64,000 nt of DNA from Pseudocercospora fijiensis CIRAD86 (taxonomy: Eukaryota > Ascomycota > Dothideomycetes > Mycosphaerellales > Mycosphaerellaceae), in the NCBI RefSeq assembly GCF_000340215.1, contig NW_006921541.1:677876-741875 (forward strand), given 5' to 3'. Positions 4,692-64,000 of this stretch are shown piece after piece; position 1 is the stretch's first letter; each line of letters starts with the position of its first letter. Position numbers and translations under genes: made by a program. Under the pieces are notes generated by a model that did no database searches, was not told where the DNA came from, and saw only the letters and a program-made list of their open reading frames with translations.

Positions 4692-7133
4692 ATGGACCAC
4701 CTGCCATCGCCTCATCCTTCGAGAGCGGAGACTTTTAGCTCTCCCGCAAGAACGACATTCTTTGAACCGGGCCACCAAACCGACGACCCTTCTGAAATCG
4801 GACCACGAAACGACCATGACGATGATGAATCGCAGACAGAGCACAACGATGATAACGCTTCGTCGCCGCAGCATATCATGGTTCAAGAGCCGAGGGTCAG
4901 ACCGAGTATGCCGTCTAAGAGGAATACGTTCAAAGGGTCGAATAGGCAGATCCACGAAGCGCTACGGATGCAGCAAGCGCGAGCGGAACAAGAGATGCTG
5001 CTAGGCGATCATGAAGAGGCGGACGACGATGGCTGCTATCCACCAAGAAAGAACGACGATCCTAGAATACCTAATCCGCACGCTCATTTGCCAGTATACA
5101 CTACGATACATAAAATAAAGAGATTGGTAGAAGCCAGTATAGGTGCGGGACAGTTTTCGCATATTATGGCAAATTACATGCTGATGCTCTGAGCAGACGA
5201 TCCATACAGTCCTGATCAGCTTAAGAGCCCGCGCATGAATGTCGCAGTCGTACGACCGTTGGTTGACCACCTGTACGATCCGGACGATGTCTCTATCATA
5301 TTTTGCTTGTTGGTCAACCGCGTGCAGTTCCTACGCGAGCAATCGTATCAGGCACACCACCAGACCGTGAACATCACGAGAGCACATCTATGTGAACTGG
5401 TCGCAGCAAGAATATTGCGCCGGTTTGACGAAGATCATGAAGGACGACTTGGACTCCTCACACTGGCCAACGTCCTTGTGGCTGGCTTCGAACCCTTCCA
5501 GAACGCACCGGGCGAGATCGCAAAGCAGCATAGGACAGAATTGCACTGGACAATTCGGTGGCAAATAGCGCGCCCGGAATTCCAGCGTATGCTGACTGCG
5601 TTAGAAGTGGCCATCGTGTCAGAGGCGAAAACTTTCTTGAGCGCGTCTGCCTGCCAAAAGATCGTCGAGAACGTCTACCAAGGGCGCATCATCTACACTC
5701 CGACGTCCTTCATCGATATACTGCCCGACCACTACAAGAATCGCGGAATCACGCTTTACGATCCTAGGAAGGCACCGATTTTGAATCAATATCGCTTGAT
5801 TGTGCCGCGCACCAGGAACATCATAGAAACTGTTCAGTTTGTGATTCTTTTGGTACTGTACATCTGGACCATGGTCAGCAAAGCGCATACGTATGGGCCC
5901 GATCATACCAAATTCATGACTGTTGAGCTGGTCTTCATCGTATATGCCATTGGCTGGAATTTGGACGAGATCGCATCAATTTTCGAGCACGGATGGACGG
6001 TCCACACAGAAAACTTATGGTCCTTCCTTGACATTGCATTTGTGTTTATCTTTTGGATATATTTTGGCGTCCGCATGCATGGCCTCGTGATGAACGACCA
6101 CTCCCTCGGCTGGCTAGCAGAAGACATCCTCGCTCTGGCAGCACCCGTCCTCTTACCACGCCTGGCTTTCTGCATAATGCCTGAGAACATGGTCTTCATC
6201 TCTCTACGAGCGATGATGGCCGACTTCACCTTCCTGACCGTAATTGCAGCCTGGTGCTTTGGCGGCTTCATCCTTGCAATGTGGTGGCTCTCCGAGACCC
6301 AAGAAGGCTTCCTCAACCACACCATCATCACAATCTCAAAATGGATGCTCTGGATTTGGTTCGGTCTCGATGGCACTGGCATACAACGCAGTGTCGAAAT
6401 GCATTGGTTTCTTGGGCCCCTTCTCATGATCACCTTTGCATTTCTCGGCAATACTCTCTTCCTTACAATCCTCGTGGCCATGCTCAGCAACACCTACAAC
6501 ACGCTTTCTCGCAACGCCACCGCCGAAATCCAGTTCCGCCGCGCAGTCTTGACCTTCGAAGGAGTCAAGTCAGACTCACTCTTCGCCTACCGTCCACCGA
6601 CCAACGTTCTCGCCTTCCTCATCCTTCTCCCTCTCAAGTTCCTGCTCACGCCACGTTGGTTCCACAAAGTCAACATCACTGCTGTGCGAATCCTCAACGC
6701 TCCCATCCTGCTGTTGATCTCCTGGTACGAACGCAGGTACTTGTGGAAACGTTCTCGCCACCTCTTTCCCCCTCGCAAGCACTCGTGGCTCTCAATGTGG
6801 GAACGTTTTGGAGCTCACGGTGATCTGCAAGCTGTATTCGACGCCGAGCCCCCCGAGAGCGTCTTGGCGGAAATGGATGATGTGGATGATGTGCTTGGAG
6901 GTGACTTTTTCGATGGGCTGGACTACGTGTCTGCAATGAGAGCCAGGCGTGGAAGCCGGAGTCTTAGTGATGCTAGCGGTGTCTTTAGCGGGGCGTTCTC
7001 CAGGTCGAGGAGTAGGATGAACGGGCTCTCGAGATTGAGAGATAGACGAGGCACGCCGGGTGCAGATATGTCGCATGCAGAGGATTTACCTGGTCCTGAT
7101 GTGCATGATGGAGGTAGCTTTAGTACTGCTTAG
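4692..7133 (+). CDS. YVC1-like vacuolar TRP cation channel
   Basis: Two exons, 4692-5142 and 5197-7133, with a 54-nt intron (GTGCGG...GAGCAG), give 795 residues. Residues 1-150 are an acidic/polar cytosolic region. The junction yields VEASIDDPYSPDQLKSPRMN, the conserved entry into the fungal Yvc1 family. Membrane segments follow from about residue 355 (ETVQFVILLVLYIWTMV) through about 585. A re-entrant pore stretch (ISKWMLWIWFGLDGTG) precedes the last helix (LLMITFAFLGNTLFLTILV). The C-terminus carries an acidic cluster (EMDDVDDVLGGDFFDG) like the calcium-responsive acidic tails of fungal Yvc1, then an Arg/Ser-rich tail. Known role of the family: calcium-permeable channel of the vacuolar membrane releasing stored Ca2+ under osmotic or mechanical stress. 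Length matches the filamentous-fungal family. Confidence 0.93.
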
Positions 7134-17200: not shown

Positions 17201-17329
17201 AGCGCGGCCGCCGCGATAGCGACAATAATAGCGTATTAATTAGGCTCTATTATCGTTACCTACGCGCCCTTACTTCGAGCCGCTATATCGCGAGTCGCTA
17301 CTAGATATATAGTCGGTATAGCCTATAGA
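14276..17329 (+). mobile_element. Mutator-like (MULE) transposon copy 1, left part, RIP-degraded
   Basis: Plus-strand frames interrupted almost only by TAG/TAA still read like a MULE transposase. Near 15800-16120 there is LFLFDATYKTSDNNFYLF, the usual DDE-type first-Asp region, then IVAITNDSA and EQRAIRLAF. Around 16340-16380 comes SPLEGYYNAIK. Cys/His motifs of a SWIM-type finger cannot be read through the decay. CpA and TpG are nearly absent. The left boundary is set where composition shifts and is approximate; I could not find a terminal inverted repeat there. The element is interrupted at 17329 by the chromovirus and resumes at 32543. Confidence 0.72.
17325..17329. repeat. Target-site duplication, left copy (ATAGA)
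   Basis: ATAGA directly precedes the left LTR and recurs directly after the right LTR (32538-32542). The second MULE copy, read on its own plus sense, carries the uninterrupted site CCTATAGATATCGAC with a single ATAGA. Confidence 0.9.
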
Positions 17330-17451
17330 TGTTATACATCGTATATTATAAAGTAGATAATTATTCTAAGTCTATCTAGGCTTAGAGAAGTATATACTAT
17401 AGGAGGCTAGGGCCTCCTACCTAGCCTATGCCTATACCTGCCTTCGTAATA
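17330..17451 (-). repeat. Left LTR (3' LTR of the element), 122 bp
   Basis: Aligns without gaps to 32416-32537. I count five differences, all transitions, as expected from RIP or short divergence time. The minus-strand sense runs from TATTACGAAGG (ancestral TG start) to ATGTATAACA. Confidence 0.9.
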
Positions 17452-17519
17452 GAATCCCCCGGTCCCGAAATGTCTGCGACTACGCGGACGGTAGACTTAG
17501 TATCTATATATATAACAAA

Positions 17520-20500
17520 AGAGATTTTAGGCTATACGCTCCTAGTTTTCGTCTCGCTATCCCTATTCTTCCTTGCCCGCTAATACTTAATATCCTATTT
17601 CCTCTAGCTAGGTCGTTAACGCGCGAGAGTATAAGAAGCACTACTGTTCGCTAACTGCGGGGTCTCTAGGATGCTCGTTATCGGGTTCTCCTTACTATAG
17701 AAGGCGCAGTTCTAGAAAGCGGAGGCCCTTTTTCTTATTAGTAGGATGTAGACTATTAAAAGTCTCTACGGTAAGTTTTCCGAGCGCCTTACGTAGGCCC
17801 TTATCGCCGCTCGGTCGTACTAATCTATAGAGCGCGGTAAGTAGTTTAAAAAGGTCGCTTTCCTCTTATCTAAGGTACTATAGTAGCGGTAGGTCTTTTA
17901 TAGCCTTAATCGCATTCGTAGCGGAGTTAGGTTCTTTAGATATACGCTAGATAGAATCGATAATTAGGGGTAGACTTAGGGTCGGCTCGTCTTCGTTATC
18001 GTATTTAATAGTGCCGTCTTCTAACTAGAAATCGGCGAGTGTATTTATAAACTCTATAATATTATCGAGGCTAGTAGGGTCGAATTTGCCGTTCTATTCG
18101 GTACCTTCCTAGTCGAATTAGTTACCGTAGTCTACAACCTCTCTCTAATTCTCTTCTAGTAGTTAGGCAAACGTAGTACCGAACTTCTAATATAGCGCGA
18201 TATATCTCTCGTACTATAACCTCTCGTCGGTGTTTAGTTCGGCGAGGTCTTCGTCGTCTATTACTTAATCGTAGCCGCTGTCTTCGAGCGCGTCGCCGAC
18301 GGCTCTTATAAGGAGGCCGACGTATTACTTGAATTCTTACGGGTCGGTGTCCTTCTACTAATTTCCTTATAACGTAGCTAATACCTTCCGAAAGTCGTCG
18401 TCGTCCTATCTATAGTTACGTATCGCCTCGATTAGTAAGATACGGCTATCGTCGATAGACGTAGGCTCCGGCGGAATTTACTAGACTATCTTTATAGGGC
18501 GGGCATATATTAGCTCCGCGAAATATAGCTGTTTTACGGCCTCGAGCTTATCGAGAATATCCTCCCTAGGGGGCCGAAACGCGTTATCTATAGTAGACCT
18601 AGAGTACCCGGTATCCTTAGTCGCGATTTGCTATAGCGGCCGTCCGCCGCTTCGGTCGTCGAGTTCCCGCGCGAAGTGCTTAAGTAGCTATCTAACGTCG
18701 TTATCTCCCTTATAGTAAACGATAGTCGCCTAGGGCATAGGCTAGATCTTGTTATTTCCGTCTATTAGGACGAGCGCCTTTATCTAGTATCGAAGGACGG
18801 CGGCTTTTAATAGTAAGGGTACCGCCGATATAAGGAGCTTGCTTATTAGGTAAAGTATTAAGCGGTCGCCGTTTTGTTAAATAACGTTTATTATTTGCTT
18901 AGGGGCGTAACTTAGCATCTAGTTCGTCTAGTTGCGAAAAGCGTTTATATCTACGTCTCTATCGTCTCTAGATATACTAGTAACGAAATCTCGATTCGGG
19001 AAAGGGTCGGCTTTATTAATTTTCTCGATCTTATCCTAAGCGGATACTAGCATTTAGGAGACCTAGAAGTAAATGTTTCCGCACTCGTAGTCGAAATTTA
19101 ATACGACTAGTATTAGATAGTAGAGGTAGGCTTTCTATTCTTTGTCTAGGAATATCGCGAGGATAAGCTAGCTAGTATCGATATTAAGTTCGTAAAAGGC
19201 TACGGAGCGGCGGATAAAATCCTTCTCCTACTCCCTTAATAGACGTAGCTTATTACCGGGTAGTACCCGCTCTAAGTCTGCGTTACGGAAGGCTATTATA
19301 AGTCTCGGGAAGTCGAAACGGCTTATAGGGAGGCGGATCGTCGAATCCGTAAGGAGTCCTTAGGGAGCTAGTCCTACGTAGATAGCGGCGTCTACGATCT
19401 CCTTATCTACGCGAGTTGTAGGTTTACTTAAGTCTAAATTGCCCTTATCGGTTGCTTTCTTCGGCGCCGCTACGGATTTCGCGGCTTACGCTTTAGTAGA
19501 CCTAGCCTTTCCTACTATTACGGCCTTCCCGGCAGGCGCCTTTATAGATTTACCTTTCCCGGCATCTAGGTCGGCTTTGCTATCGTCGGCTTTAGTAGAC
19601 TTAGCCTTTTTAGTAGCGGTTAGCGGGTCGGCTTTGCTATTGTCGGCTTTAGTAGACTTAGCCTTTTTAGCGGCGGCTAGAGCCGACGTAGGTACATCCT
19701 TGCGCTTTCTAGCTATCGAGGTAGAGGCGGCCTTCTATACTTTCGCGGCTTTCTAGGCCGCTTTCTAGGCCTTTGCGTCGGCCTGCTCCTAGGCCTTCTG
19801 TTCTTAGAGTTTAGCCTTGAATTTCTTAGTCTATATAGATATCCTCTAGTCGATTGCTTTTTTCTACTTTATATAGTCGGGATATAGTAGTATCGCCGGG
19901 CGTTAGTATCCGTCTTTCGTTATCGCCTTAGCCTTCTCTTCGTAGTAGGCTAAAGGAATATCCTAAAAGATTATGCCTTAGGTAGCCGGTATAAGACTTA
20001 ATATTAGGTCTATTAGTAGGGCGCGTAGGCCTAGTAGGAAACGGCCTAACTATATCTAAAAGTTGCGGATAACGCGCTCGAAATCCCTAGTAATGTCGCT
20101 ATATTCTAATTGCTACTTCTCGTCGTCTATAAGCGCCGCGATTAACTATATATATATCGAGCGCTATATTTTTAGCTGTTCGCCCTAAAGAATTAGCGCC
20201 GGGTAGGGTTTAGGGAAGATATCGTAGATAGACTCGAGGTCTTCGATAATTCTCTACCTTAGATCTGCCTTATAACGCTCGAATATATCGGCGATTAGTC
20301 CGGCGAAACAACTCGCTACCTCTATATAGTTTACGAGGCAGCCTACTCCTTCCGTAACCTAGTATACTAGCGCGTAGTAGGCGACGGTAATAGGCGTTAT
20401 TTCGCCTTAGTAAATCGTCTAAAAAGCCGTTATATAAGCAAGACTGTTTCGCTCGTATCTTAGGACGGCGTAGTTCGGTATCGTAAAGTCCTCCGGAGCC

Positions 20501-22236
20501 TTAGAGGTATATAAGATCGAGTTATTCGTAGAGAAATCGCCTTTATTAATATTATATAGTAGCTTGTTACCGGCGGTCGCCTACTCGAGTAAGCGTACGT
20601 TAGCACTATAGTAAGGGTTTCTCGGTCCGCTCTAGCCTTTCCTTATCTATCTAGGAGGGTAGATCTCGCCCGTACTCTTTTAAATCGCCTTAGGCTATTC
20701 GCCGGGGGGGGCGTATTACTAATTTACGTACTTTTCGGAACCGTATATAGAATCCGGGTTAATAAGCGCCGTCTTAAATTCGTTAAGGCTAAAATATAAT
20801 AGCTAGACCGATGCGAGGTATACCGCTAGTCTATTAGGCAAAATATTAATAAGCTAGTCCGCCCGTAGTGCCGCGCGTACGCCGAGAATAGCCTTCTTCC
20901 TAGCTTAGGTAGGCTTCTCGTCGTCGGCGTCGAAATCGTACTCGTCCTTAAAAGAGGCGAGGTCCGGCTAGAGGCAGTTGCTATATACGTCGCGGCCCTT
21001 ATTATCCTTTTTTCTAAACTTCCTCTTATACTAGTCGAGCTTAGCCTTCGAGGCCTTCTTAATATCGGCGAGACGCGTAGCGCGCTCGCCCTCTATCTCC
21101 GATTCGATCTATAGGGCCTTATAGCTATTGTCTTTAAGGCCCTCTTCTCTCGATTCCTTACGATAGACCTAGCGTCTAGCCTTAGTCTCTATACCGTCGC
21201 GAAGCTTCTATTCGTAGAGGTCGAGGCGTTCGCGACCCTACTAATCGTAGGTATCGTAGTAGTGCGGCGCGTCGGCGTTATAGCTAGTCTCTAAGGTATA
21301 GTAGAGGCGGTTTCCTAAGGCGCCGATCGTTTTATAGACCTAAGGTATAGCTATATACTCGATCCGAGGAGTGCCGAAAGCCGTATATCGCTCGGCGTAG
21401 ATAGGAGCTACGGGTAACTATAGTACTAGAGCTTTCTCCGGCCTACTATTCGTTATAATCTTATATAGGAGTTTGTATTCGCGTCGTATTATACCGTTAA
21501 TAGAACGTACTAGTATACTAGGTACGTCCGAGACGGCGTTAGCCTTATAGCTAGCTCTATCGATATATAAGAGTATATCGGAGAACCTTAGCACCTTGTC
21601 TAGGTACGGTATACGTAGGATTTCGCCCGGCTTAGGTAGTGCGATAATAAGGCGCTTTATCTTAGGCGCCTATCTCTTAGTAGCCTTCTATCCTTACTCT
21701 TCTTTCCCGTCGTTATCGGATATATCTTCCTTAACCTCGTCGTTATCCTATCCTTACTCTTCCCTATCGGTAGATATAGCCTACTTTCCTACTACTCCTC
21801 TATTATCTAGAGTAGTAGACTAATTATCCTTAGGATTTCCCCTATCTCCCGTAGTATCCTTATCCTTAGTTCTAGGAATAGGCTCCCCTTCTTCGTTATT
21901 GCTTTTTTTATTTTTATTTTCTTTATTCTCGTTTTCTTTATTCTCGGGAATAGGCTCCCGTCCTCTATTTTCCTTATAGTCTTTATTGCTATCTTCTCTA
22001 TCTATTTCTATAGCCTTAGGATCCTCTCTATTCTTAACTCTATTACTCTTTCCTATTTCCTTAGGATCTTCGTCGCGCTATAGCGATATCGTTACCTAGC
22101 CGGACGGAGGCGTTTCGGGGGTGCCGCCTAGTAGAGGCGTGTATTCTAGTAGAGGTATGTCTTCCTAGCCGAATATCGCCGCGCCGCGCTTTAACTAAAG
22201 CTTCGACCCGCCGGCTATAGTAGTAATGCTTCTTAT
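17520..22236 (-). pseudogene. Additional ORF of the chromovirus, about 1,570 codons, function unknown
   Basis: Reading the minus strand in one fixed frame from about 22236 gives a continuous protein-like sequence down to about 17520. It is broken only by TAG/TAA codons that fit ancestral CAG, CAA or TGG; I saw no indel over 4.7 kb. The start codon is probably the ATA at 22236 (ATG before RIP). Order: Gly/Pro-rich start, a charged Lys/Glu/Asn-rich region (about 22080-21660), a long globular-looking region (about 21660-19880), a Lys/Ala-rich linker with a repeat (KKAKSTKADNSKAD and KKAKSTKADDSKAD, about 19570-19680), and a second globular region (about 19450-17580) with acidic stretches such as DDEDLAELNTDER. 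No reverse transcriptase, integrase, env-like membrane helix or signal peptide is visible. It lies between the chromodomain end of pol and the 3' LTR, the place of env or extra ORFs in other LTR elements. Confidence 0.72.
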
Positions 22237-22699
22237 AATGCTTGTTTAACGTTACTATAATATAGATAGCTATAGTTACGCGCCTCGTAGCTATATATAT
22301 TGTTACGCCTCGTAGCTATATATATTGTTGTTATCGTTAATCCGAGCGATAGTTAAAATATTACTTCGGCGATATAGTCCGAGCTTCTACGTACCGCGTT
22401 AGTAACGGTCGCGCGGGTACGTAAACCTTATTCTAGCCGCGTATATCTAATAGATAGAAGGCGCTAGAATAGCTAGAAAGTAAGGGTACGGGAGAAGGAT
22501 AGAGTAGCGTCTTAGGCCCGATATCTAGGTCTATAATACGTATAAGATCTGTTTAAGTAATTTTCCTAGAAACTTCTTAGATTTCTCCTAATAGGGGAAA
22601 AACCTATAGCTATAGGTCGAGGTACCGATTCGTAGTAATTAGAGGGAAACGTAATATAGTAAAAAAGGACGGTAAGGTATCGTTACGGAGGATTCTACG

Positions 22700-25600
22700 A
22701 TACGCCCCTACCTATGTATTTAGTAGGGCTAGAGTATCTCGCTATCGCTAGATCTCCTCCTTAGTAAGGCGTCTTACCGTCGGGATAAGCGCCCTAGCCT
22801 TTAGTTTACGCGATCGGGCGTTAGATACGGATAGTAGACCTAAGGTCTTAGCCTGTTTCCGGGCGTCGTAGCTACCGCTATCGCGGAAGCGATATACGTC
22901 TAAGCTAATCGATTCGCTTAACGTAGTATTTTTACTTGCTAGCGAAGTTAGCCGGTTCGGGTCTATATCGGTAGCCGACTAACCTATCTACGCTTCCTAG
23001 GCGTCGGGTTAGGTAACCTTCTTAATAGACTTAGGATCGCTATCTTCCGCGTAGTTCGGCCTTCCGCCTCCTCTTAGCGGCTACCGTCTTATAGGCTACG
23101 TATCTCGCCGTAGCTATTTCTCTTTATTATTATTAGACTAGAGTCGCTTTACTATCGGCGCGACCTACGTAGGTATTCGCGATATTAGGGATAGTTTTAT
23201 CTAACTAATCTGCTTATCCGTAATTTAGGAGTCCTCGAACTAGTCGATTAGGTAAGCGTTACTCTCTAGAAGGTCGTCTGCCCTAATCTATTTATTTATT
23301 ATTAGCTGCTCGTCCTTCTACTTAACTAGATATTCCGTTTTTCCTCTAGAACTATACTTCCCTAAAACGCGTTTAGGAGTTATTGCTAGTTGCTTAGACT
23401 ATAGGTCTATCGGTACGGGGATATAGTCGTATAGTCTTACGAACGGGTCCTTTACTAGGTTAGGGGCTAGCTTAAGCTACGCGATCGATATTACCGGGTA
23501 GAACTTAGCTAATTTCGGCAGCTCTAGTTTATAGGCGAGCTTACCTATCCTTCTCTTAATCTTAAAAGGGCCTATAGCCTAATTGCTATATTTGCGATAG
23601 CTCTAACTATATACGCGATATCCGTAATATAGCCTAAGTATAGTATAGTCTCCCGGCTCGAAGAATATATACTAATGCTTAGTATCGTAGCGGTACTTTA
23701 TATCTACCGCTACGAAGGCTATAGATTCCTCGGCTACGTCGCGAAAGTACTATCGTAGCGTTACGTAGTCTTTTAGCTACAATTCCTAGAGCCCGATAAA
23801 GGCGTCGGTATTTAAATCGAACCCGAAAAGTATCTTATCGGGCGAGACGCCGGTACTCGCATTCTTAATACTCCCGAGATAGGATATAAGGGAGGGAAGG
23901 ACGTCCGTCTACTATATATCTAGATTTGCCGTAACAAAATACCGTATAGCGATCTTAACGGTCTAATTTGTACGCTTAGACTAGCTATCTATCTATAGGT
24001 AGTAAGCTATAGAGGCGAGGATCGATATACCTAGCAGCTTTATTATTATAGTAAAAAATTTAGATAGCTATTTAGGGTCCCGGTCGCAAATAAATACCTT
24101 AGCAACCCGCTAAGATCGTTCTTAGATAGACGTAAGGTATTAGGCTACCTACGTTTCTATAGTCTACTAGCATTTCCCGGGAAGTAGTAAAACTCGCTTA
24201 GATTTCTTATAGGTAACTATAAGGAGCGTATCGAAACCTTCGTTAGTAGGCGGGAGTCCTATAATCTAATCCGCTATTTAGACGTCTATAGGAAGTCGAT
24301 ACTTCGAGTCTATTAGGTTAAGCTAGCCGTAAGGCTTATACCGAGTCGATTAGTTCGCCTTATATATATTACACTAATCGATATATCGTTCTAAATATCG
24401 ACGGTAGTTCCTAATATAGAAACTAGCGTTAACTCGATCGAGCGTACGCTAGAACCCCGCGTAGTACCTTAGGTTATATACTATCTTAAAGATCTCGTAA
24501 GTAAGAGCGAAAGGAATATATAATCGAGAGTAAAGTAAAACTAGGTCGACGTAGTAGATAAGGCCGTCCTCCCGAAAGAATCTAATACTATATAAGGACT
24601 TTAGGTCTATAGGAATATCGTCTAGCCTCTTAAGCGCGTTCTATATACTACGAGCGGCCGTATCCTCTAAAGAGCGGAGAGAAGGCGGTTTTAGGAGGTA
24701 GCCGGGCGTCGCCTTAGGATAGACCTATAGTTTCTCGCTACTATCTTTGCGCTAGGCGGCTTCGAGGTATACGGATCTTCGCTTAAGCTCTCTATCTCGC
24801 TCGCGTTTCTACTTCCTCCTCGCTTACCGGTTTAATATTCGATCTAGCTAAGGTTACTATTCCTATATATACGCTATCTCGATAGACTAAAGGACGGAGA
24901 GTAAACGTCTCTACGGACGGTCTTCTTAATAAGCCTATCTTAGCTAGGTCTTAAAGTTATCGGACAGCGATATAACCGTTTTAATATAATAGCTAGGTTC
25001 CCCTCGGAGACTATAGAAAAATATAGGGATCTTATCGTAGGCCTAGTATTTATATCTATCGAGTCGCGAAAGAAAATACTTAGTATAGTCGATCCCGGAT
25101 AGGGATACTATATTAACTAACGCTATAGTAGGAAGAATAGGAACGCTTAGATAGAAGTTCGGAAGGGCTAAGGATCGCGGCCTAGGATCTAGGTAAGGGG
25201 GTATAGTACCGGTCTTTAGTATAGGCCGATTCTAGGTATCGTTCGTATATCGTCTAGATCTTTCTATAATATATACCTTTTCTACGCCGCTCCCGATATC
25301 TTCGATAGACGTAGGGTTTTGTAGCATTTCTAACATCGGCGCCCTTACTAATATCGCGGGAATCTCGTCGAGGCCGCTTATATTAAGGTTATATCGATTA
25401 GAAGAGCTCGTATCTTACAATCGGGAGAGTATATCGGGAGCGATATAATTCCTACCTAGCCTATAAATAATATCGAGGTTTGTAAACTAGGAAATATATA
25501 CCGCGGCTTAGATAATTCGGCGGTTAAGGCTAGCCGTAGATACCGTCGTTGCGATCTATATCTTTTTCGCTATCGTAGTAACTATACTATAGTCGGTAAC

Positions 25601-28100
25601 TACGATAGTCTTTAGCGCGGAATCTACTATATAAGAGGCCCTCTTAATTGCCTATACTATCCCGAACAATTCGAGTTCTATAGGCTAGTAGCGGGCTTCG
25701 GCCCCGGTAAGTATATAGCTAGTAAATCCTAAGACCTTAAGTCTATTACGCGGGAATTGCTTAGATCTCCGTAACTAGGTAGTACTATTAACGAAATCTG
25801 AAACTATATCGTCTCTACGAGTTACTAGTTCGGGCTCCTCGTATTCTATATCTAAGTCTCCGTAGACTTAGTAGTATATTATCCCGATTCCGAATTCCTT
25901 AGATATATTAACGTCGATATAGAGGGTAGACTTAGGGTTAAAATGCTAAAGAAACCCTCGGTACTCTTCCGACTATATCGACTATATAATTTCCTAAGCG
26001 GTATTTATTTCGTTAGTCTATTAGAGGCGCGCGCCCCGTATTTAAGCGCGTCGCTTGCCTCCTTTCGTTTAGGTAGCCTAATAATCCTTTATAGCCGCGA
26101 CTTTCGCCTATTATAGCGGTAGGGTAATTCTTCCGTAGTATAGTACCGTAGACCTAAGGTAGCCTACTAGTCCGAGATATTGCTTAAGTTATTCGGCGTT
26201 AGTAGGTTTTTCTAATTCTCGTAGTACTACGAGTCGATCCGCCTACGTTACGAAGCCTTTTCCGTCTACTTCTCTATCTAGGATTTTTATAGAGGGGAAA
26301 CCTAAGAACGCCTTTCCTAGCTCTAAACTAAACCGTATCTTATCTATTTTTTTAAATACGCGATTAAGCAAATCTCGGTAGGACTCTAGGTCTACCGAGC
26401 CGAGAACTATATCGTTAATATACCTATTCGCTACGTCGCCGAATTCCCGTAGGGTACGGTCGAGTAGTCTTTATACGTACTATACGCTATTATAGTAACC
26501 TATAGTAGCGACTTTTAGATATTCCTATCCCCGCGTAGTATTAACGGTAAATTTCTAGCGATCCTTTTCCGCGACTACGAACTAGTAGAATATAGATCTT
26601 ATATCTATAATAGAAATGTACTTATAGCCGCGTAATTTCGCGATAATATCGTCCTAGAGTAGTAGCGGGTAAGTGTCCTTCTAGGATATACTATTAAGGC
26701 CTCGGATGTCGATTACTACGCGCGGCTTCCTATACGTAGTACTATCGTCGCGGAAAAGAGTTCTCTAAACTATAAAGACTAGCTATACTAGCGGCGATAG
26801 CTTTTTACTATAGGCTATTTTGCCTTAAGTATAAAGCTTATTAAACTGCTTATTTACCTCTATATTGTCCTTATTAGATATACGGTAGACCTTGCTACTA
26901 AACTTCTCGTTTTCCTAGCCCGATTTAAGTAGGAGCTCTAGCTATCTATCTTTAGGAAGATCGATCGTCGTACCTCGATCTATCTATAGTTAGGGGTATT
27001 TCTCTACGATAGACCTAATGTCTAAGGCTACCGCGGTATCTAGATTCGCTATATAGATCGTTACTCTAGCCGAGGTTATAACGGTAGCTATCCCCGTATC
27101 TACTAAGATCTTCGTAGTATCGGAAGGGTAGTCTAGGTCTATTAAGTCTATCTCGTCGTTTTCGCTAAGTCCGTAAATAGTAGGTTAAGATTTACGGATC
27201 CGCTAGAATTATAGGCCTACTCTAGCCTAATCGCGATTTACGGAGTCTTTAGCTAGAGGCGGGATTAACTAAAACTAGCCTATAGCGTCGCTTTGAAAAA
27301 CTGCTAGTAACTATAGGTCTATCGGTTCGGATATATAGTAGAGCCTATTTATTAGTCGTAGATCTCGTCTAAGAGGCGCGCCGCTAATCTTACGCTCTAT
27401 CGACCTAGGGTCGGTATCGAACTCGTCGATCTAGTAGAAGTTATCTAGCTATAGTTCCTATAATTCGCCTATACTTCGATATCGCTAAATAATTAAGTCG
27501 TTATCGTAGCTAAGGTTACGGACCTATACCGCTAGCATCTCTAGTCCGGCTATATAGGCGTATACTACCGCCGTATTAGGGAGGCCTAGTAGATTTAGCG
27601 CGAAGAGGAAGTCCCTATTTACGTCCTTTAGGGCGTCGGCTTTATCGATTTATACCTTAGCTATAACGGCTATATATAGTAGTACTCTTAGTCTATCTAT
27701 AGACTTGATATTAGCGCGTAGGAAACGATTAGATTTTAGCGAATAGGCGATCGGTATAAGCGCGCCGTCGTTTCCTATTATCTTAATATATCTAGCGCCT
27801 ATATAGATAATAAATCCTACGGGCGTTATAATATCTATCCCGAGGAGTATATTATAGGGTAAGTTTAGTATTACCCTTACTAGCTATTTAATATAGGCTA
27901 GAGCGGGTAACTAAGAATACCTAGTAAAGATAGGAAAGTATATCGACAAATTAATCTATTACTCGTACTATATACTTCTAGCTAAACTACGGAATTCTAG
28001 AGGTTGCTTAAGATACTAAATATCGTCCTACCCTAGTTATATAGTTAGCTACCCCCGGTCTATTATAGATGCTTTAGTACTAGTATCGAGGCAAACGCGC
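22700..28100 (-). pseudogene. Chromoviral pol: RT, RNase H, integrase, chromodomain
   Basis: Minus-strand frames give, in order: an aspartic-protease-like stretch (ILVDTGIATVI, about 27130); RT entry (RGTTIDLPKDR, then KPRVVIDIRGLN about 26750-26695 and KFTVNTTRG); the RT active site as RYINDIVLGS (about 26440), where family members have YxDD; RNase H beginning YIDVNISKEFGIG and ending YRLGRNYIAPDILSRL (about 25440); the integrase core and tail (FFTIIIKLLGISILASIAYY, SKRTN about 24040-23950); then GKTEYLVK*KDEQLIINK*IR (23345-23285), whose stops at KWK and W positions identify a chromodomain. The set defines a Ty3/gypsy chromovirus. All copies of the key motifs are damaged, so it is not functional. 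Confidence 0.85.
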
Positions 28101-28799
28101 TTAAAATCCCCTTCCGGAGAAAGGGCGTAGTTCGCTTCGACGATATCGTAATATCTAAAGGTATAAGCTAGGTCTCCCGGAGGGAGTTTTACTAAGTAGG
28201 GTATGATTTGCAATTCCTATTAAGGGCGTTCTCGTATATAATAGACCTATAGTATAAGGTTATTAATAGTACCGAAGGAGCGCTTCCCTACGCGAGCCTT
28301 CCTATCGTCGATAGAGGAAGAAATCTTCGAGGTACTCGATAAAATTATATAGTACTACGCCTCTTCTACTAAGGGCGTAGCCTTAGCCGTTTAGGCGATA
28401 TAGTAGACTTAGGGCTACTCCGTAACTAATATTATAGCATTCTAAGTATTTAACGCGTCTAGATTAATCGAGGACCTCCCGATAGTAGTCGCTACGCCCG
28501 CTAGGATATCTAGTAGCAAATCTAATATATAGATAGAGCTAGGCGTAGTCTACTATAGAGCGATCGTAGCGGAAGAATCTTCTATAGGAAAAGCTACGCC
28601 CGCTAGCGTAGGCGTATAATCCGCTATAGGGGGGCGCGATACCGATATAGACTAGAATATTTAGGCTTAGATATCTGTTAATAGACTAGAGGTTGCGGGC
28701 TATAGTGCTAGAAGTATAGGTATCGATATTTAGCTAGGCTATCCTACTATAATCGTTATTACTAGGTATAAAGATATTTACTTATCCGATAGTAAGCGA

Positions 28800-31700
28800 C
28801 CCGGCGACTTAGGGAGTTCCGCTACCGCTAGAGATCCTAGAATTTCCGGTAGACTTGCGGTTTTATACTAGCTAGTAGTAACTAGTTTTACTTCTAGCTC
28901 GAGGAGTTTCCCGGAGCTAGCTCGTAAAGAATATTCGTACGCTTCCTAGTAGCGTCCTTAGGGTACGTATAATCGAGGTAGCTATTAAAAAACTCGTTAG
29001 CCGAGCGGAAAACCTCTCTATATATATTGTAACGCGTCTACTAACCTTCGGGTCGCGTCTTATCGCGTTAAGGCTAGGCATTTACCTTAGGTCTACGAAC
29101 CTGCGGCTAGGCGTAGTATACTAGAGTTAACTATAGATTTGTAGGAGGAAGAGCTTAGTCCTCTTCTACCTCGATACCGCCGACATCCTCGCCGGCTACG
29201 TACTAATCCTCGGCCTACTCTCCGCCCTCGGCTTAGGTAGTATTATCGTATTCTAGTTCTTAATAGTTAGTCTCCTACCCTAGGTCTACTAAATCGTAGA
29301 AGAACGTAGCTTTACTACGAGCCTAGGAATTTGCGGGAATGCCTTAGCCTCTTATATTTCTAAAATTCGTCTACTATCTCTAAGGATTCGGATACTACGG
29401 GAGACCGCGGGCGTCTACTATTTTCTCGTTCGCGCTTACGTTTACGCCCTATAGTCTCTAGCGGCTATAGACCTATAATCTAGGCTAACGGCGTTACTAG
29501 AATATATTAGGTTGCTACCGATTATAGGGATTGTTGTTTCTAAGAAAAGACGAGCGTCTAGTATTAAAACGAGACCTAGACGCGAACCTAGGGTCTACGA
29601 ACCTACCCTATACCGAATCGCTACGTCGAAGGTTTAACTTACTATTATAGTAGCCGGTAGTAGTGCTACCTAGAGGATATAACTCTACCTATATCGTATA
29701 ATAGGCTTATATTATATCGATAAGTGTCTAATACGTCTATAATAGCGTAGGCGTATTAAGATCGCTATATAGCTCTAGTACGATCTTCCGGAAGGTATAG
29801 TTAATTTGCCCTATAAGTAACTCCGTACCGCTTTACTACGCTAAACGCATAACGTTAATAACGAATTCGCTTACGCTCTTTCGGGCCGCGACTTCTTTAA
29901 TACGATATTGTTCCGATTCTAATTCGCGCGCCGCGACTAAGAGGTCTAATCGGAACTACTCGCGTAAGGCCTCCTTCTATCGCTCGATACCCGGGCTAGT
30001 TTAAAGGAGCGTACGTCGATCGTTAGTAAGGCCGTAAAGGTACTAAGCTAAGGCGGAGCCCTAAAGGTATCTATATAGTAATAGACGTAGGGTTGCTACT
30101 AGATACTCGCCTACTTAAATAGCTATATCGAGGCGAGTAATAAAAGCAAAAACGTCTCGATAATAGGCCGTATTACTAATATATATAACTAGGCCTTTGC
30201 CCTTACTCTCCGGAAGGTCCTTATTAAAATACCTAACTTACTTAGGCTTAAACTTATAGGGCGCGACCTCCTAGCTAAAGTCCGTAACTAGAGTATAAGG
30301 AGGACTAGCGTATTATAGAGTATATACGTCGGCGGGCTCGAACCTCGGGTCTATAAAGCCGGCCCTATCTTAGGTAGGCCTAGGATTGCCTTTAGCGCTA
30401 AGGCCTCTATAGGCGTAGCGTTCCGAGCTAATCTCTAGTACGATACTAGCTCGAGCATTCCGATTCTAATTAGCTAGCTACTTAGCTCTAGTCGTACCTT
30501 AGCTAGTTCGGCTACGTATCGCGTAAAGATTTCTATATCGCTACTACCCCGGTAGCCTAGAATAGTTATTATTCGGTCGTAGGGCCGCTAAGGCAGCGTT
30601 ATTAGACTATATTACCTCTACTAGTTTTCCTACTAATGCCTCTAGCTTATTATATCTAGTATTGTCGTTGTTAGTGCTAGCGGAGGTATTGTTATTCCTA
30701 TTATTCCTAGCATTAGTATTAGTATTAGTAGTAGCGTTGTTATTCGCGGTAACCTCGTCGTTAAAGTGTTTAGTAGACTTAGTAATCCTCCTTCGACGTC
30801 GCTATTCGTCGGTAAGGAACAATTTAGGGATACTATTCGTATCGATAGTATAGCGCTATTCTAAGGCTGTTAGAGGTAGTGCTCTACTAGCTTCTATACC
30901 CTTATCTCTACTTTTGTTCTTAGCTCTTATAGCCTCCTTACGGCCTTCGTTAAACGCTTGTTAGATTTAGGCCTATATCTCGATCTCGTAAGCCTCGCGC
31001 TGTTCGTCTAATGCCCTCTATAGACGTATACGATCCGTAGCTCGATTATTATCTACCTTAGTACGTTGCTCGGCTAGCTACTAAGCTACCTAGGACTTTA
31101 TTTGTCTAATTTTATCTCGCTATTTAGCGCCGGCTATACCGTTTGCCGGTACTATAGATCCTAGAGCTTACTTACCCGATATATCTTCTCCTTCTAGCTA
31201 GGAATCCGGTAGTAAGCTAAGTATCGAACTACTAGATACCGAGATTAATAAGCTCTCGCGAGGCTTAGGAGGCAGGTCGTCTTTACGAAAGGCTCCGAAA
31301 TTCTTAAAAACGTTACCCGTTAGTAGGTTGATTTTAAAAGACTCCCTATATCTATTAGGCTTAGCTTAGCCTAAGTTCTCGTCCTTAATTAAGCGACGGA
31401 CGCCCTACTTCTCTAGTCGTAGAGGGATATAAACCTTGCGGCGACGTAGCTAATTCTCGCCCGCGGCCGGATTCTCGTCGGTAGACTTAAGGTATTCTAC
31501 TAGCTACTAAGCGAAGTATAGGCTATCCGACTAGTGCGAAGTTAGACGATATACTTGTCGTATAGCGGAAAGCGATAGGGAGTTGTCGTTAACCTACGAG
31601 CTAATAATCTTAGCGCGTATCTAAGGCTTAGGGGTTGCGTCTTTATCTATATCTAGAACGCGGGACTATAACCTTAGGCAACGTAGAGGTTTAGCCTCCT

Positions 31701-31980
31701 CCGGATCCTCGTACTACTCGGTAATAGCGATAACTCTATATCTAAGATCCTTCTCGAATAGCTTGCTTAGACACTACCTTAGTTTTAAGAAAGCTAATAG
31801 TATATATACCGTATAAACTAGGTAGTATCTGTCTTCCTTTAATTCGGGAAGAGTATAATCCTCCTAAGCTATAGGCGGCGGATCGTTCGGAGATTCCTAG
31901 TCCTTTAATACTATAGGCTCTAGTATTGTAACGTAGATATTAAAAGGCAGAGCGGGAAACCGTCTCGATATTAACCGTAG
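28800..31980 (-). pseudogene. Chromoviral gag, RIP-degraded
   Basis: One minus-strand frame reads as a capsid-type Gag: YFNKDLPESKGKGLVIY, FAFITRLDIAI, VGEYLVATLRLLL, GSALA*YLYGLTNDRRTLL and FRLDLLVAARELESEQY between about 30240 and 29880. An Asn/Thr-rich run precedes it (about 30660-30780). The frame stays coherent upstream to about 31980, giving a Gag near 1,000 codons, long for this group. A zinc knuckle may lie near 29520-29460 but its Cys codons cannot be read reliably. Stops are TAG/TAA only. The 3' end is approximate. Confidence 0.72.
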
Positions 31981-32415
31981 TTATAGGCGTAGTAGCTACC
32001 GTAAGAGTAGTCGGAACCTCCTACGTCCTTATACTTAAAAAGGGGGAAGTTAGGAGGGTTAGGTACCTAGCTCCTACTAACCCGAACTAACGCTCCTACC
32101 CTTAGTAAGTAAGGGTATTAATAGAGGGAGCGTAAAGCGCGCCGCGGCGTAGGGCTAGGTCTATCGTCGATCTCCGAGCCGATTCGCCTATAGATCTCGT
32201 ATATTTCGTACTAAATTATAGCCTCTTTCTTTATAGCGTAGCTGCGGCGTTCTATAGTACGGAAAGTAGTATTAGAGTAGTTCGTTAGGATTCTCCTTCA
32301 GCGCGGAGGACTTTTCGCCTTAGAGAGGGGAAATAGTAAACCGTAGTTCGGATAGTCCGTTTAGAGACAGTTAGTACGTGTTTTTACGCTAGTACTCGAA
32401 GCGAAGCTACTATTT

Positions 32416-32537
32416 TATTATATATCGTATATTATAAAGTAGATAATTATTCTAAGTCTATCTAGGCTTAGAGAAGTATGTACTATAGGAGGCTAGGGCC
32501 TCCTGCCTAGCCTATGCCTATACCTACCTTCGTAATA
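32416..32537 (-). repeat. Right LTR (5' LTR of the element), 122 bp
   Basis: Partner of 17330-17451. It starts TATTATATATCG where the left copy has TGTTATACATCG, i.e. G-to-A and C-to-T changes only. Confidence 0.9.
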
Positions 32538-32542
32538 ATAGA
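32538..32542. repeat. Target-site duplication, right copy (ATAGA)
   Basis: Direct repeat of 17325-17329, followed by TATCGACTTAG, the continuation of the MULE sequence seen uninterrupted in the inverted copy near 63500. Confidence 0.9.
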
Positions 32543-61009: not shown

Positions 61010-62910
61010 GGCTGGCGGAAAGTGCGCTCAGGTGTTGAAGAGAGTGTGTGTGGGAGTTGTTCAGGTTGAAGTGCTCGGCTGAGTCGGCACTGCGCCAACC
61101 TGCTGACGCGCCGAGAATGTTTCACAGTGGCGAGGATGGCAGTATTTATCCTCGTGTGGAGCCAGGGACTCGAGGGAGGGGTTCTGTGGAGTAGGTAGGT
61201 CGAGGCGGTATCGATACCCGATCTATCTTGAGACTGCGTATGAGTATGAGTGTGAGTGTGTGCGTGCTGCGGCGGGCGGCTGAGCAGAAGTCAAAGTCAA
61301 CAGGTCGGCCTGTGCCTGTGACGATGCTGTGTGCGGTGCGGTATACGCCAGGACCAGCGGGAAGCGAAGCGATGGGCGGTCACCGTGTAGACTTGGTGAC
61401 TTTCCTCCAAGGATTCCTCAGGCTTCGTGACGCGCCAGCGCCAACAAATGCATACACTCTTAGGTAGAGACAGAATTTTGTGTCAAGGCTTGTTGGTCAA
61501 CGCCTCGCCTCGCCTCGCCTCGCATGCTGTCGAGCCGCTCGGCCTTCTTGGCGCGTCGAGGGGTAAAACTACATACAAGTCCGAATGTCCCGTCCCGTCC
61601 CGTTCTTCGCCATGGCTCCTTTCTCGAAACATCAGGTCCATCTTCTACTCTCATCAGATCCACCTTGCCAATTCGGCGGCCAATTCTGCAATCACAGCCA
61701 GTATTGATTCATCTTGCTAGAAGCTGCCGGTAGCATGGATCATTTTCTTGACGGTCGCTCCGAAGCCACAGCATGCAGTCTACAGTCTAGTCGACCGCCG
61801 CCGCATTATGCAGCCTTGCGACCAATAGGACATCACAATTTAAGCCTGGTCTGATACTGCCAGACAGACCCGAACTTCTTCATTCGACGCTTCGAGCATA
61901 CCACGTGCATCTCTGCTCCGATGTAAGCTTCTGCCAGCAGGACTATGCCACATGCGTCTAGATACGTTCTTCAGGTACATAGCCGGCATGCCTGCTCATC
62001 AACGTGGAAGCCACAGAGGAGCCTGCCAGAGGCGTTTTCGTGGCTGGCTGGCCACAGCTTCAACAATGAAGCACCAATTGGACCCGTGCGCGCACAATCA
62101 ACTCACAGCGGTGTGCTTTGCATCGAGCATCATCTCACTCTTCACCTGCATCTGCGTTGTCAAAGCCACTCACGCCACAACCATGCCATGCCATGAGGAG
62201 CAATCGCGGTATCCGCGTGGCACAGTGTTTACTGGCAGTGCATGTTCAGGGAATGACAGAACGAATCTTGAAAGGAGGTGGTGATGCGCTACATCACCCA
62301 TGTCACCAACTCATCTCTCTTTGGGAACCCGTTCGCCCAGAATTGGACTCCCGCTGAGCGTCACAGTTGCATTTGTAACAGGTGCAAAATCCAGGACTCC
62401 ATTCACTACACCCATGCTACTAGCCACTATCTGCTCTCGAGCAGCAAGATCTCACGATGGTCCTGAACTCTTCGCGCGACAGGGATTCGAGTAACAAATG
62501 GTAAAGCTCAGAAATTGATCCTGCCGCTCTGACGGGATTCGTTTGGAGCTTGCAGCTATAGCTCTGTGGGTCGGCATCTAAGAAGCACTGACATGATCGC
62601 ACTGACTACATGCCAAATGATTCCTCCGATAGCTGCAACGAATCAGGCACCGATGAACACAGCTCCTGCAGTCACCTAAATTTCGAAATGATGCTAACGA
62701 AGCCACGCCAAGTCACGGTAGCTTCGACGCAGGTGACTATGCATGCAATATCGAACTTTCTACTTCAGCCCTGCGAACAATAGCAGACTAGCGCTCCTGT
62801 GAACAGCCATCATTGAGGTTAGGCATAGCTCGGCACGAGCGACGGACATAGTCCAGGCCCATCTGTACCTGGCAAGGCTGACCATCATCCTCAATCCAGC
62901 AATCAGATAC
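61010..62910. other. Intergenic stretch left of the inverted MULE copy
   Basis: Contains simple repeats (TGAGTG-type at about 61235-61265, CGCCT-type at about 61503-61525). No supported gene on either strand over 1.9 kb. Confidence 0.5.
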
Positions 62911-64000
62911 AGGCGATTGTCCAAAGATTTTAGTGTACCACTCTTCTGGGCTGCAGCCACCAAAGTTTGCTGGCAGAGTCCCGATATAGTGGTATAACCT
63001 GTTCTAGATTAGAATGGCCTTAGCTAAGGTAACGATTAGGGTTAAGAAGGAGGGTGTTCTTAGTGCGACAGCTTGCCTAATTAGTCGACTAGCAGTCGAC
63101 TAGATAGATAGGGGTTAACTCTAATATTAATACGTATTACTAGCACTATAGGCCTATATATAGTCGCTGTTTTAACGTTGCTATTACTATTGCTATCGCT
63201 ATATTAACTTGACGTTACTATTACTATTGCTATCGCTATATTAACTCTACCTATTATTACTATCGCTATATTATCTCTACCTCTTACTACTATTACTATA
63301 TTAATTAGAAGTCCTTCTCTTACCCTTTATCTTACGTATCGCGTCGTCGTTGTCTATCTAGTTATATTTAGAAGCTACTATTCGCTCTAATCCGAGGTTT
63401 ATAACTCTAGAAGGTCTTTAAGGCGTTATAAGGTCGATAAAGGACGTATTCGACGCTCGAGGCGTATCGCTAGTTAAATCTACCTTTTTAACTAAGTCGA
63501 TATCTATAGGCTATACCGACTATATATTTAGCAACAACTCGCAACGTAGCGGCGGCTCGAAGTAAAAGCGCGTAAGTAACGATAATAGAGCCTAATTAGT
63601 ACGCTATTATCGCTATCGCGGCGGCCGCGCTATAGCTAGCGCTCGGAAGGTTATTATTATCGATCGAGTTAGAGTCGTCGGCTGCGCTAGAAGGTATAAG
63701 GTCTACTACCGCAGCCGCTTACTTATAAAAGTAACCTTAGGGGCGCCGCTCTCGTAGTAATTAGTAATGGAGTAGTTAGTAAGGCTATATAGCGTATCCT
63801 TAACCTTACGAAGGAAGCCGCGTATATAGCTATCGCGTACTACTAGATTAACGGTCTTATTATCGCGAATATAATAGAAGTATTAAAATAGGCCCTCGGC
63901 GGCCTTATTATAGTGCGACCTTAAATTACGAAGATATAGATCTTTTATAGTCTATAGCTTCCGCGTATCTTCGTAGCCTTCTAGCTATAACTAATCGCTA
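62911..64000 (-). mobile_element. MULE copy 2, inverted, partial (runs off the window)
   Basis: The reverse complement matches 32543-33077 (terminus AGGCGATTGTCC at 62911) and continues without a break into the sequence of 16830-17329, across the site where copy 1 carries the chromovirus. Differences from copy 1 are mostly transitions, plus length change in the ATAGCGATAGCAATA tandem array (about 63170-63310). Only the 3' 1.1 kb is inside the window. Confidence 0.85.

What the first reader, a model, noticed from the sequence alone, without database searches (positions are those of the whole stretch)
17330..32537. A 15.2-kb chromovirus, about twice the usual size, with only 122-bp LTRs
Seen directly: gap-free paired 122-bp repeats with only transition differences, an exact 5-bp target duplication, a polypurine tract beside the 3' LTR, and one minus-strand coding order gag - pol(RT, RNase H, integrase, chromodomain) - extra ORF. 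From family knowledge, fungal Ty3/gypsy chromoviruses are about 5-8 kb. The added length comes from a Gag near 1,000 codons and a 4.7-kb third ORF. I know of no described fungal lineage with this plan, though I cannot search.
Basis: partly seen in the sequence, partly recalled or inferred. Interest (0 to 1): 0.88.

Follow-up and report, generated by a model that had tools for sequence, protein, structure and literature searches.

The report
Giant fungal retrotransposon with third gene
This is one dead copy of a family of unusually long jumping genes in a fungus; each carries, besides the two usual genes, a large third gene of unknown function that natural selection once kept working.

Summary
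Window 17330-32537 is one 15,208-bp LTR retrotransposon: 122-bp LTRs differing by 5 transitions, a 5-bp target duplication, a polypurine-like tract, and a primer site matching an initiator tRNA-Met of this genome at 12 of 13 nt. Repeats elsewhere that lack the element match its joined flanks across the junction. The plan recurs: five further copies are colinear at ~15.2 kb, a sixth has a deletion; 24 of 24 family RT places have a third-ORF match downstream. A sister family (15.2-15.3 kb) shares gag, pol and third ORF; a distant 13.2-kb family shares pol and has coding sequence after it. Transversions, which RIP does not make, are in excess at third codon positions in gag, pol and ORF3, not in spacer or leader: ORF3 (~1,400 codons) was a real gene. 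All is RIP-killed. Size alone is not new: fungal Gypsy elements over 13 kb (PMC2864245) and 6-20 kb in Mycosphaerella fijiensis (PMC3562529) are in print. What ORF3 does, and its relatives elsewhere, remain open.

The parts
32416..32537 (-). 5' LTR (122 bp; element is on the minus strand)
17330..17451 (-). 3' LTR (122 bp)
   Evidence: 5 transitions, 0 transversions against the 5' LTR
17325..17329 (.). target-site duplication copy 1 (ATAGA)
   Evidence: empty-site match
32538..32542 (.). target-site duplication copy 2 (ATAGA)
   Evidence: empty-site match
32400..32412 (-). primer binding site, 3 nt inside the 5' LTR; matches the complement of an initiator tRNA-Met 3' end at 12 of 13 nt (the difference is of RIP type)
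17452..17466 (-). polypurine-like tract next to the 3' LTR (similar in family B)
28640..31937 (-). gag, ~1,100 codons, codon position 1 at coordinate 0 mod 3, 86 stops
   Evidence: transversions by coordinate mod 3: 115/231/111, p=6e-14; stops in the three frames 86/129/84; homology to family B, weak to family C (E=6e-4)
22640..28337 (-). pol, ~1,900 codons, codon position 1 at 1 mod 3, 119 stops
   Evidence: transversions 96/147/357, p=3e-42; stops in the three frames 196/119/170
27653..27883 (-). protease-like segment (LLG-x-D motif by eye, motif recalled); no Pfam hit
26114..26731 (-). reverse transcriptase, with Y-I-N-D where Y-x-D-D is expected (recalled motif)
   Evidence: tblastn with an intact Gypsy pol frame of the same genome, E=2e-11; family C tblastx
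25430..25930 (-). RNase H region (by eye; a family C piece hits RT_RNaseH_2 at E=0.005, below the Pfam cut-off)
23939..24586 (-). integrase zinc finger and core region
   Evidence: matches family C at 45-55% aa; weak match to a Gypsy pol in the same frame, E=0.11
23480..23578 (-). integrase C-terminal SH3 domain (Pfam SH3_Tf2-1)
   Evidence: 34.2 bits, cut-off 30, E=2.8e-8
23230..23371 (-). chromodomain-like motif at the integrase tail
   Evidence: by eye in families A, B and C; no Pfam support
22040..22639 (-). spacer between pol and ORF3, no codon periodicity (44/49/52)
17838..22039 (-). third ORF, ~1,400 codons, codon position 1 at 0 mod 3, 83 stops
   Evidence: transversions 314/460/277, p=2.5e-12; stops in the three frames 83/129/103; present in the copies checked; aa homology to family B ORF3
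19489..19734 (-). lysine/alanine-rich segment of ORF3, with a 57-bp tandem duplication at 19569-19680

Best explanation
It is a RIP-killed copy of an autonomous-type Ty3/Gypsy LTR retrotransposon family of giant size. Shown: one unit inserted with a 5-bp duplication into another repeat; three genes were under protein-level selection before death; the same plan recurs in the family and in a sister family. Inferred from the anatomy and from general knowledge of LTR elements: a ~15-kb RNA ran from LTR to LTR; an initiator tRNA-Met primed minus-strand DNA just inside the 5' LTR; the polypurine-like tract primed plus-strand DNA; an integrase with a chromodomain-like tail inserted the product, probably into heterochromatin; RIP then changed most CpA/TpG and put stops in all three frames. 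ORF3 lies behind a non-coding spacer, so it was probably made from its own start or a shorter RNA. Its high charge of both signs, its lysine/alanine-rich stretch and the lack of more hydrophobic segments than pol has favour an accessory protein of the particle or nucleus rather than an envelope (about 0.35 for that role).
For: LTRs, duplication, tract. Joined flanks match three element-free repeats (L047-L049) over 1,538-1,552 of 2,001 bp at 91-93%, and two more (L050, L053) over shorter stretches, all across the junction. Six other copies fetched: five colinear at ~15.2 kb, one lacking 20942-22893. A 1.1-kb ORF3 probe lies downstream of RT on the same strand in 24 of 24 family-A places: 15 at 5.3-5.4 kb, one at 3.4 kb, eight at 11-32 kb. 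Family B (4 copies fetched) is colinear in gag, pol and ORF3. Third-position transversion excess in gag, pol and ORF3, none in spacer or leader; ORF3 excess also inside family A in 4 of 5 copies compared with the window (the fifth has no transversion there), and in two segments of family C's 3' region. The same primer site follows the 5' LTR in the copies of A, B and C examined and fits an initiator tRNA-Met over 12-13 nt, several copies with one RIP-type difference. RT and SH3_Tf2-1. RIP: (CA+TG)/(AC+GT)=0.14 against 1.33-1.36 in gene-rich parts of the window. ORF3 16.2% K+R and 15.4% D+E; 12 of 421 stop-free 19-residue windows hydrophobic, pol 19 of 646.
Against: No intact copy of A, B or C was seen, so activity and expression of ORF3 are inferred. 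Region edges for the codon test were set after seeing the 300-bp scan; two of its ORF3 windows (19338-19937) do not show the ORF3 class, and the gag frame does not have the fewest stops (86, another frame 84). Family C's 3' region shows no detectable similarity to ORF3 of A or B, so a common third gene is shown for A and B only. The chromodomain has no Pfam support. ORF3 pieces had no Pfam hit and no protein hit. The strongest hydrophobic window of ORF3 (2.08) is in the membrane-segment range, and RIP distorts composition, so its role is a guess.
Confidence: 0.85

Rival explanations
1. Composite: a normal ~10-kb Gypsy element into which a separate 5-kb element (17.5-22.2 kb) was inserted, then copied along.
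For: Similarity between families A and B is much weaker in ORF3 than in pol.
Against: Apart from the LTRs, no direct repeat longer than 55 bp inside; an ORF3 match in 24 of 24 family places and in family B at the same place and orientation; codon selection in ORF3 across A and B.
Confidence: 0.03
2. The added 3' length is non-coding filler or captured junk between pol and the 3' LTR.
For: No open frame is left; no Pfam or protein relative.
Against: Third-position transversion excess 314/460/277 over 4,168 aligned sites (p=2.5e-12), while the neighbouring spacer shows 44/49/52; also within family A; ORF3 translations of A and B match at 29-55% aa in the ORF3 frame.
Confidence: 0.04
3. ORF3 is an envelope-like gene, making this an endogenous retrovirus-like element.
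For: Position after pol is where env genes lie (PMC5408684, passages read); the strongest hydrophobic window (2.08) would allow a membrane segment.
Against: No more hydrophobic windows than pol (12 of 421 against 19 of 646) and high charge of both signs; no Pfam hit. RIP removes Cys, Trp, Gln, Met and His codons, so the test is weak.
Confidence: 0.1
4. ORF3 is a captured host gene with a recognisable function that RIP damage hides.
For: Such captures are known in other LTR elements (PMC5408684, PMC6431247, passages read).
Against: An ORF3 piece of family B finds 47 places in the genome (48 candidates, all scored): 16 at 84-100%, 31 at 33-43%. I take nearly all for family copies by identity and position, not checked one by one. 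Outside the 84-100% group the only place without a stop is C21:149263-149442, an unmutated relic in a frame of only 148 codons. C18:362760 was not examined.
Confidence: 0.2

Closest known systems
Fungal chromodomain Gypsy elements surveyed by Novikova et al. 2010 (PMC2864245; section 5 and passages read, supplement not readable)
   Same: Gypsy elements of fungi, many with a chromodomain, lengths from 4.4 to more than 13 kb; the legend of Figure 3 lists an additional ORF of unknown function
   Different: Which element carries that ORF (fungal ones or the spikemoss one in the same figure), which families are over 13 kb, and their LTR lengths are in a figure and a table I could not see; no RT tree linking them to this element was made
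LTR-Gypsy elements of Mycosphaerella (Pseudocercospora) fijiensis, 2012 (PMC3562529; passages read)
   Same: Probably the same genus, perhaps the same species; sizes of 6-20 kb reported; most carry stops and RIP was found
   Different: The passages read give LTRs of a few hundred bp to over 1 kb and a gag-pol plan; no third gene is described in them
Giant plant Gypsy elements such as Ogre, and ORF3-bearing bdelloid elements (PMC6431247, PMC5408684; passages read)
   Same: Extra ORFs beside gag and pol, downstream of pol in the bdelloid elements
   Different: Ogre owes much of its size to LTRs of 1.9-6.5 kb; here the LTRs are 122 bp and the length is internal

Membership tests
LTR retrotransposon | Paired LTRs, target duplication, primer site, polypurine tract | tested here: met
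LTR retrotransposon | Reverse transcriptase | tested here: met
   tblastn E=2e-11
Ty3/Gypsy | Order RT - RNase H - integrase | tested here: met
   RT at 26.1-26.7 kb, then the integrase SH3 domain at 23.5 kb in the same minus-strand frame; RNase H between them by eye only
Ty3/Gypsy | RT groups with Ty3/Gypsy in a tree | not tested
   No reference RT set was fetched; only similarity to a Gypsy pol of the same genome
Chromovirus | Chromodomain at the integrase C-terminus | tested here: inconclusive
   Motif by eye in A, B and C. Its pieces in A and B were too short to be in the Pfam scans; one C piece with its start had no Chromo hit; the genome scan scored 150 of 1,033 candidates and the window's motif is not listed
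Endogenous retrovirus-like (env-bearing) element | Envelope gene with membrane anchor | tested here: inconclusive
   No more hydrophobic windows in ORF3 than in pol, but RIP distorts composition
Large retrotransposon derivative (LARD) | Internal region without coding capacity | tested here: not met
   Codon-position selection in all three ORFs

The most novel reading that the evidence does not exclude
Short-LTR giant chromodomain retrotransposons with a conserved third gene of more than 1,000 codons form an old lineage in ascomycete fungi; the third gene is a new protein family that serves the element in the nucleus, for instance in packing, targeting or resisting silencing.
Probability: 0.25. 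Interest if true: 0.65.

Novelty: new variant of a known kind. Interest (0 to 1): 0.45.

Why it matters
LTRs of 122 bp with ~15 kb between them show that a fungal LTR element could carry three long genes, beyond the ~10 kb around which size limits of retrotransposons have been set (PMC6431247, passage read). The transversion test shows how to tell that an ORF was real in elements wholly ruined by RIP, without mending anything. The third gene is a concrete unknown whose relatives can be sought in fungi with little RIP.

Tried and rejected
Pfam on stop-free pieces: 10 pol pieces, 50 of 69 listed gag/pol and family B/C pieces, 30 pieces of ORF3 and of C's 3' region (12 of 12 from the window, 14 of 15 from B, 4 from C), and 10 again one by one; only SH3_Tf2-1 passed its cut-off. 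RVT_1 and Chromo scans of the genome scored 150 of 2,414 and 150 of 1,033 candidates; the window's own copy is in neither list. Protein searches with an ORF3 piece and with RT pieces found nothing, but that tool admits only proteins 0.55-1.75 times the query's length, so this says little. Viral contigs: 10 pattern matches, no relative. Solved structures: five chance-level hits, E 0.22 and up. Dating by LTRs was dropped: in the 7 A pairs and 4 B pairs every difference is a transition, as RIP makes; the C pair counted has 6 transitions and 1 transversion. Comparing ORF3 of A and B with C's 3' region gave nothing credible. Eight paper searches for long fungal elements or a third ORF (listings) and one on M. 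fijiensis turned up no closer description; I opened nine papers, mostly for passages. Supplements were not readable.

Full report
What was checked. The finding was tested in the window and in the genome that holds it (G000, 73.9 Mb, 30 contigs; the window is C10:677876-741875). The host is a Pseudocercospora or close kin: a calcium-channel protein at window 5235-7130 is 96% identical to that of P. fuligena.

The unit. LTRs of 122 bp lie at 17330-17451 and 32416-32537, without a gap, with 5 transitions and no transversion between them, flanked by ATAGA. The element sits inside another repeat. When its two flanks are joined at one copy of the duplication (2,001 bp), three copies of that repeat elsewhere (L047, L048, L049) match over 1,538-1,552 bp at 91-93%, starting at the left end and running about 540 bp past the junction; two more (L050, and L053 inside the window) match over shorter stretches across it. 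So the whole 15.2 kb entered as one piece.

Recurrence. The LTR search gave 68 candidates, 40 of them scored. I fetched six further copies: five span about 15.2 kb and align along their whole length with the window's element, one lacks 20942-22893. Of these seven copies, six have an exact 5-bp duplication and one has 4 of 5 bases the same (the C22 pair was indexed wrongly there and corrected). I assigned 24 RT places to family A: 22 at 89% aa or more and two partial ones, from 150 scored hits of 248 candidates. All 24 have a match to a 1.1-kb ORF3 probe downstream on the same strand within 40 kb: 15 at 5.3-5.4 kb, one at 3.4 kb (the deleted copy) and eight at 11-32 kb, where I infer later nested insertions. 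Seven of the 31 ORF3 places used were left unpaired, two of them apparently second halves of split copies; nine weaker ORF3 hits (six at 72-73%, three at 77-81%) were left out, and 10 of its 50 candidates were not scored.

Sister families. Four copies of family B (RT about 80% aa) run 15.2-15.3 kb between LTR alignments of 126-150 bp and match the window in gag, pol and parts of ORF3 in the same order. Family C (RT about 44% aa) was measured in one copy: 13.2 kb with an LTR alignment of 187 bp; two more C copies gave LTR alignments of 188 and 192 bp. C matches A along pol; in gag there is one weak match (E=6e-4). After shifting LTR edges by eye to TG...CA, the four B copies and three C copies also show 5-bp duplications. 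In the copies of A, B and C examined, TGGTAGCTTCGC or a form with one RIP-type change follows the 5' LTR by about 3 nt. It is complementary over 12-13 nt to the 3' end, with CCA, of an initiator tRNA-Met gene at C5:2504115-2504245; the second initiator gene found (C6) would match over only 7 nt.

Are the genes real? No frame of 120 codons or more survives on the coding strand, and CpA/TpG are almost gone. RIP makes only transitions (general knowledge), so transversions between families A and B show older selection. By coordinate modulo 3 they are 115/231/111 in gag, 96/147/357 in pol and 314/460/277 in ORF3, against 44/49/52 in the spacer and 28/31/26 in the leader. The region edges were set after looking at a 300-bp scan, in which the ORF3 windows at 19338-19937 do not follow the ORF3 class. 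Stops per frame agree for pol and ORF3 but not clearly for gag, where another frame has 84 against 86. ORF3 of the window against five other family-A copies shows the same class in four (for example 8/22/8) and no transversion at all in the fifth; these five comparisons share the window and are not independent. In family C the region after pol shows periodicity in two segments and two frames (19/10/4 and 9/18/5 for one pair, 21/9/8 and 7/39/14 for another; the pairs share one sequence). So ORF3 was a protein-coding gene in A and B, and C also had coding sequence there, whose likeness to ORF3 was not detectable.

What the proteins are. RT is found by tblastn with an intact Gypsy pol frame of the same genome (E=2e-11); the integrase tail hits SH3_Tf2-1 at 34.2 bits. 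A chromodomain-like motif (YLVK-x-K and following residues) is read by eye in A, B and C without Pfam support. ORF3 pieces have no Pfam hit. ORF3 is rich in both charges, with a lysine/alanine-rich repeat at 19489-19734, and has no more hydrophobic windows than pol, though its strongest one would allow a membrane segment. A relic that escaped RIP at C21:149113-149559 (148 codons open; GC about 51%) carries part of the front of ORF3, an acidic/lysine-rich stretch followed by the conserved block, 54% identical to the window over 39 residues.

How it probably worked. Everything from transcription to integration is inferred from the anatomy and general knowledge of LTR elements. ORF3 as an accessory particle or nuclear protein is a guess at about 0.35; envelope about 0.1; a disguised host gene about 0.2.

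Novelty. Gypsy elements over 13 kb in fungi (PMC2864245) and of 6-20 kb in M. fijiensis (PMC3562529) are in print, and an additional ORF is named in a figure legend of the former without its bearer. In what I read no short-LTR family with a 1,400-codon third gene is described, but the table and figure that could show one were out of reach, and the library searched lacks most subscription papers.

Noticed in passing
G000:C5:2504115-2504245 (L057 and L056): An initiator tRNA-Met gene is interrupted near the junction of D stem and anticodon stem by 59 nt that begin GTGAGT and end CTAAC...TAG, like a spliceosomal intron. With the insert left out ARAGORN calls tRNA-Met(cat); with it, ARAGORN calls nothing in two runs and a tRNA-Arg with an intron in a third, intron-seeking run. 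The primer sites of the three retrotransposon families fit this gene, not the uninterrupted one at C6. One paper search gave nothing on this (listing only).
   Followed up: partly
window 23538-24137: 600 bp of the integrase region are 90-91% identical between families A and B with only 4 transversions, while the 300 bp on either side show 14 and 27: a hint of recombination between the families or of strong constraint.
   Followed up: no
window 62905-63485 and both flanks of the element: A second copy of the repeat into which the element inserted lies near the window's right end; with this one, 20 places in the genome match the right flank over more than 250 bp.
   Followed up: partly
window 28338-28637: About 300 bp between gag and pol in family A have no counterpart in the aligned family B copy.
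   Followed up: no
L034:3958-4455 and the like in L036, L038, L039: Family B has, between the end of pol homology and the conserved ORF3 block, a stretch reading as many NSSLLL-like repeats in a frame other than that of ORF3.
   Followed up: no
L012, L013, L015, L018, L020 against the window: Within family A, ORF3 of L020 has no transversion against the window while L012, L013, L015 and L018 have 38-51; in the pol tail L012, L018 and L020 have 7-9 and L013 and L015 have 39: a mosaic pattern.
   Followed up: no
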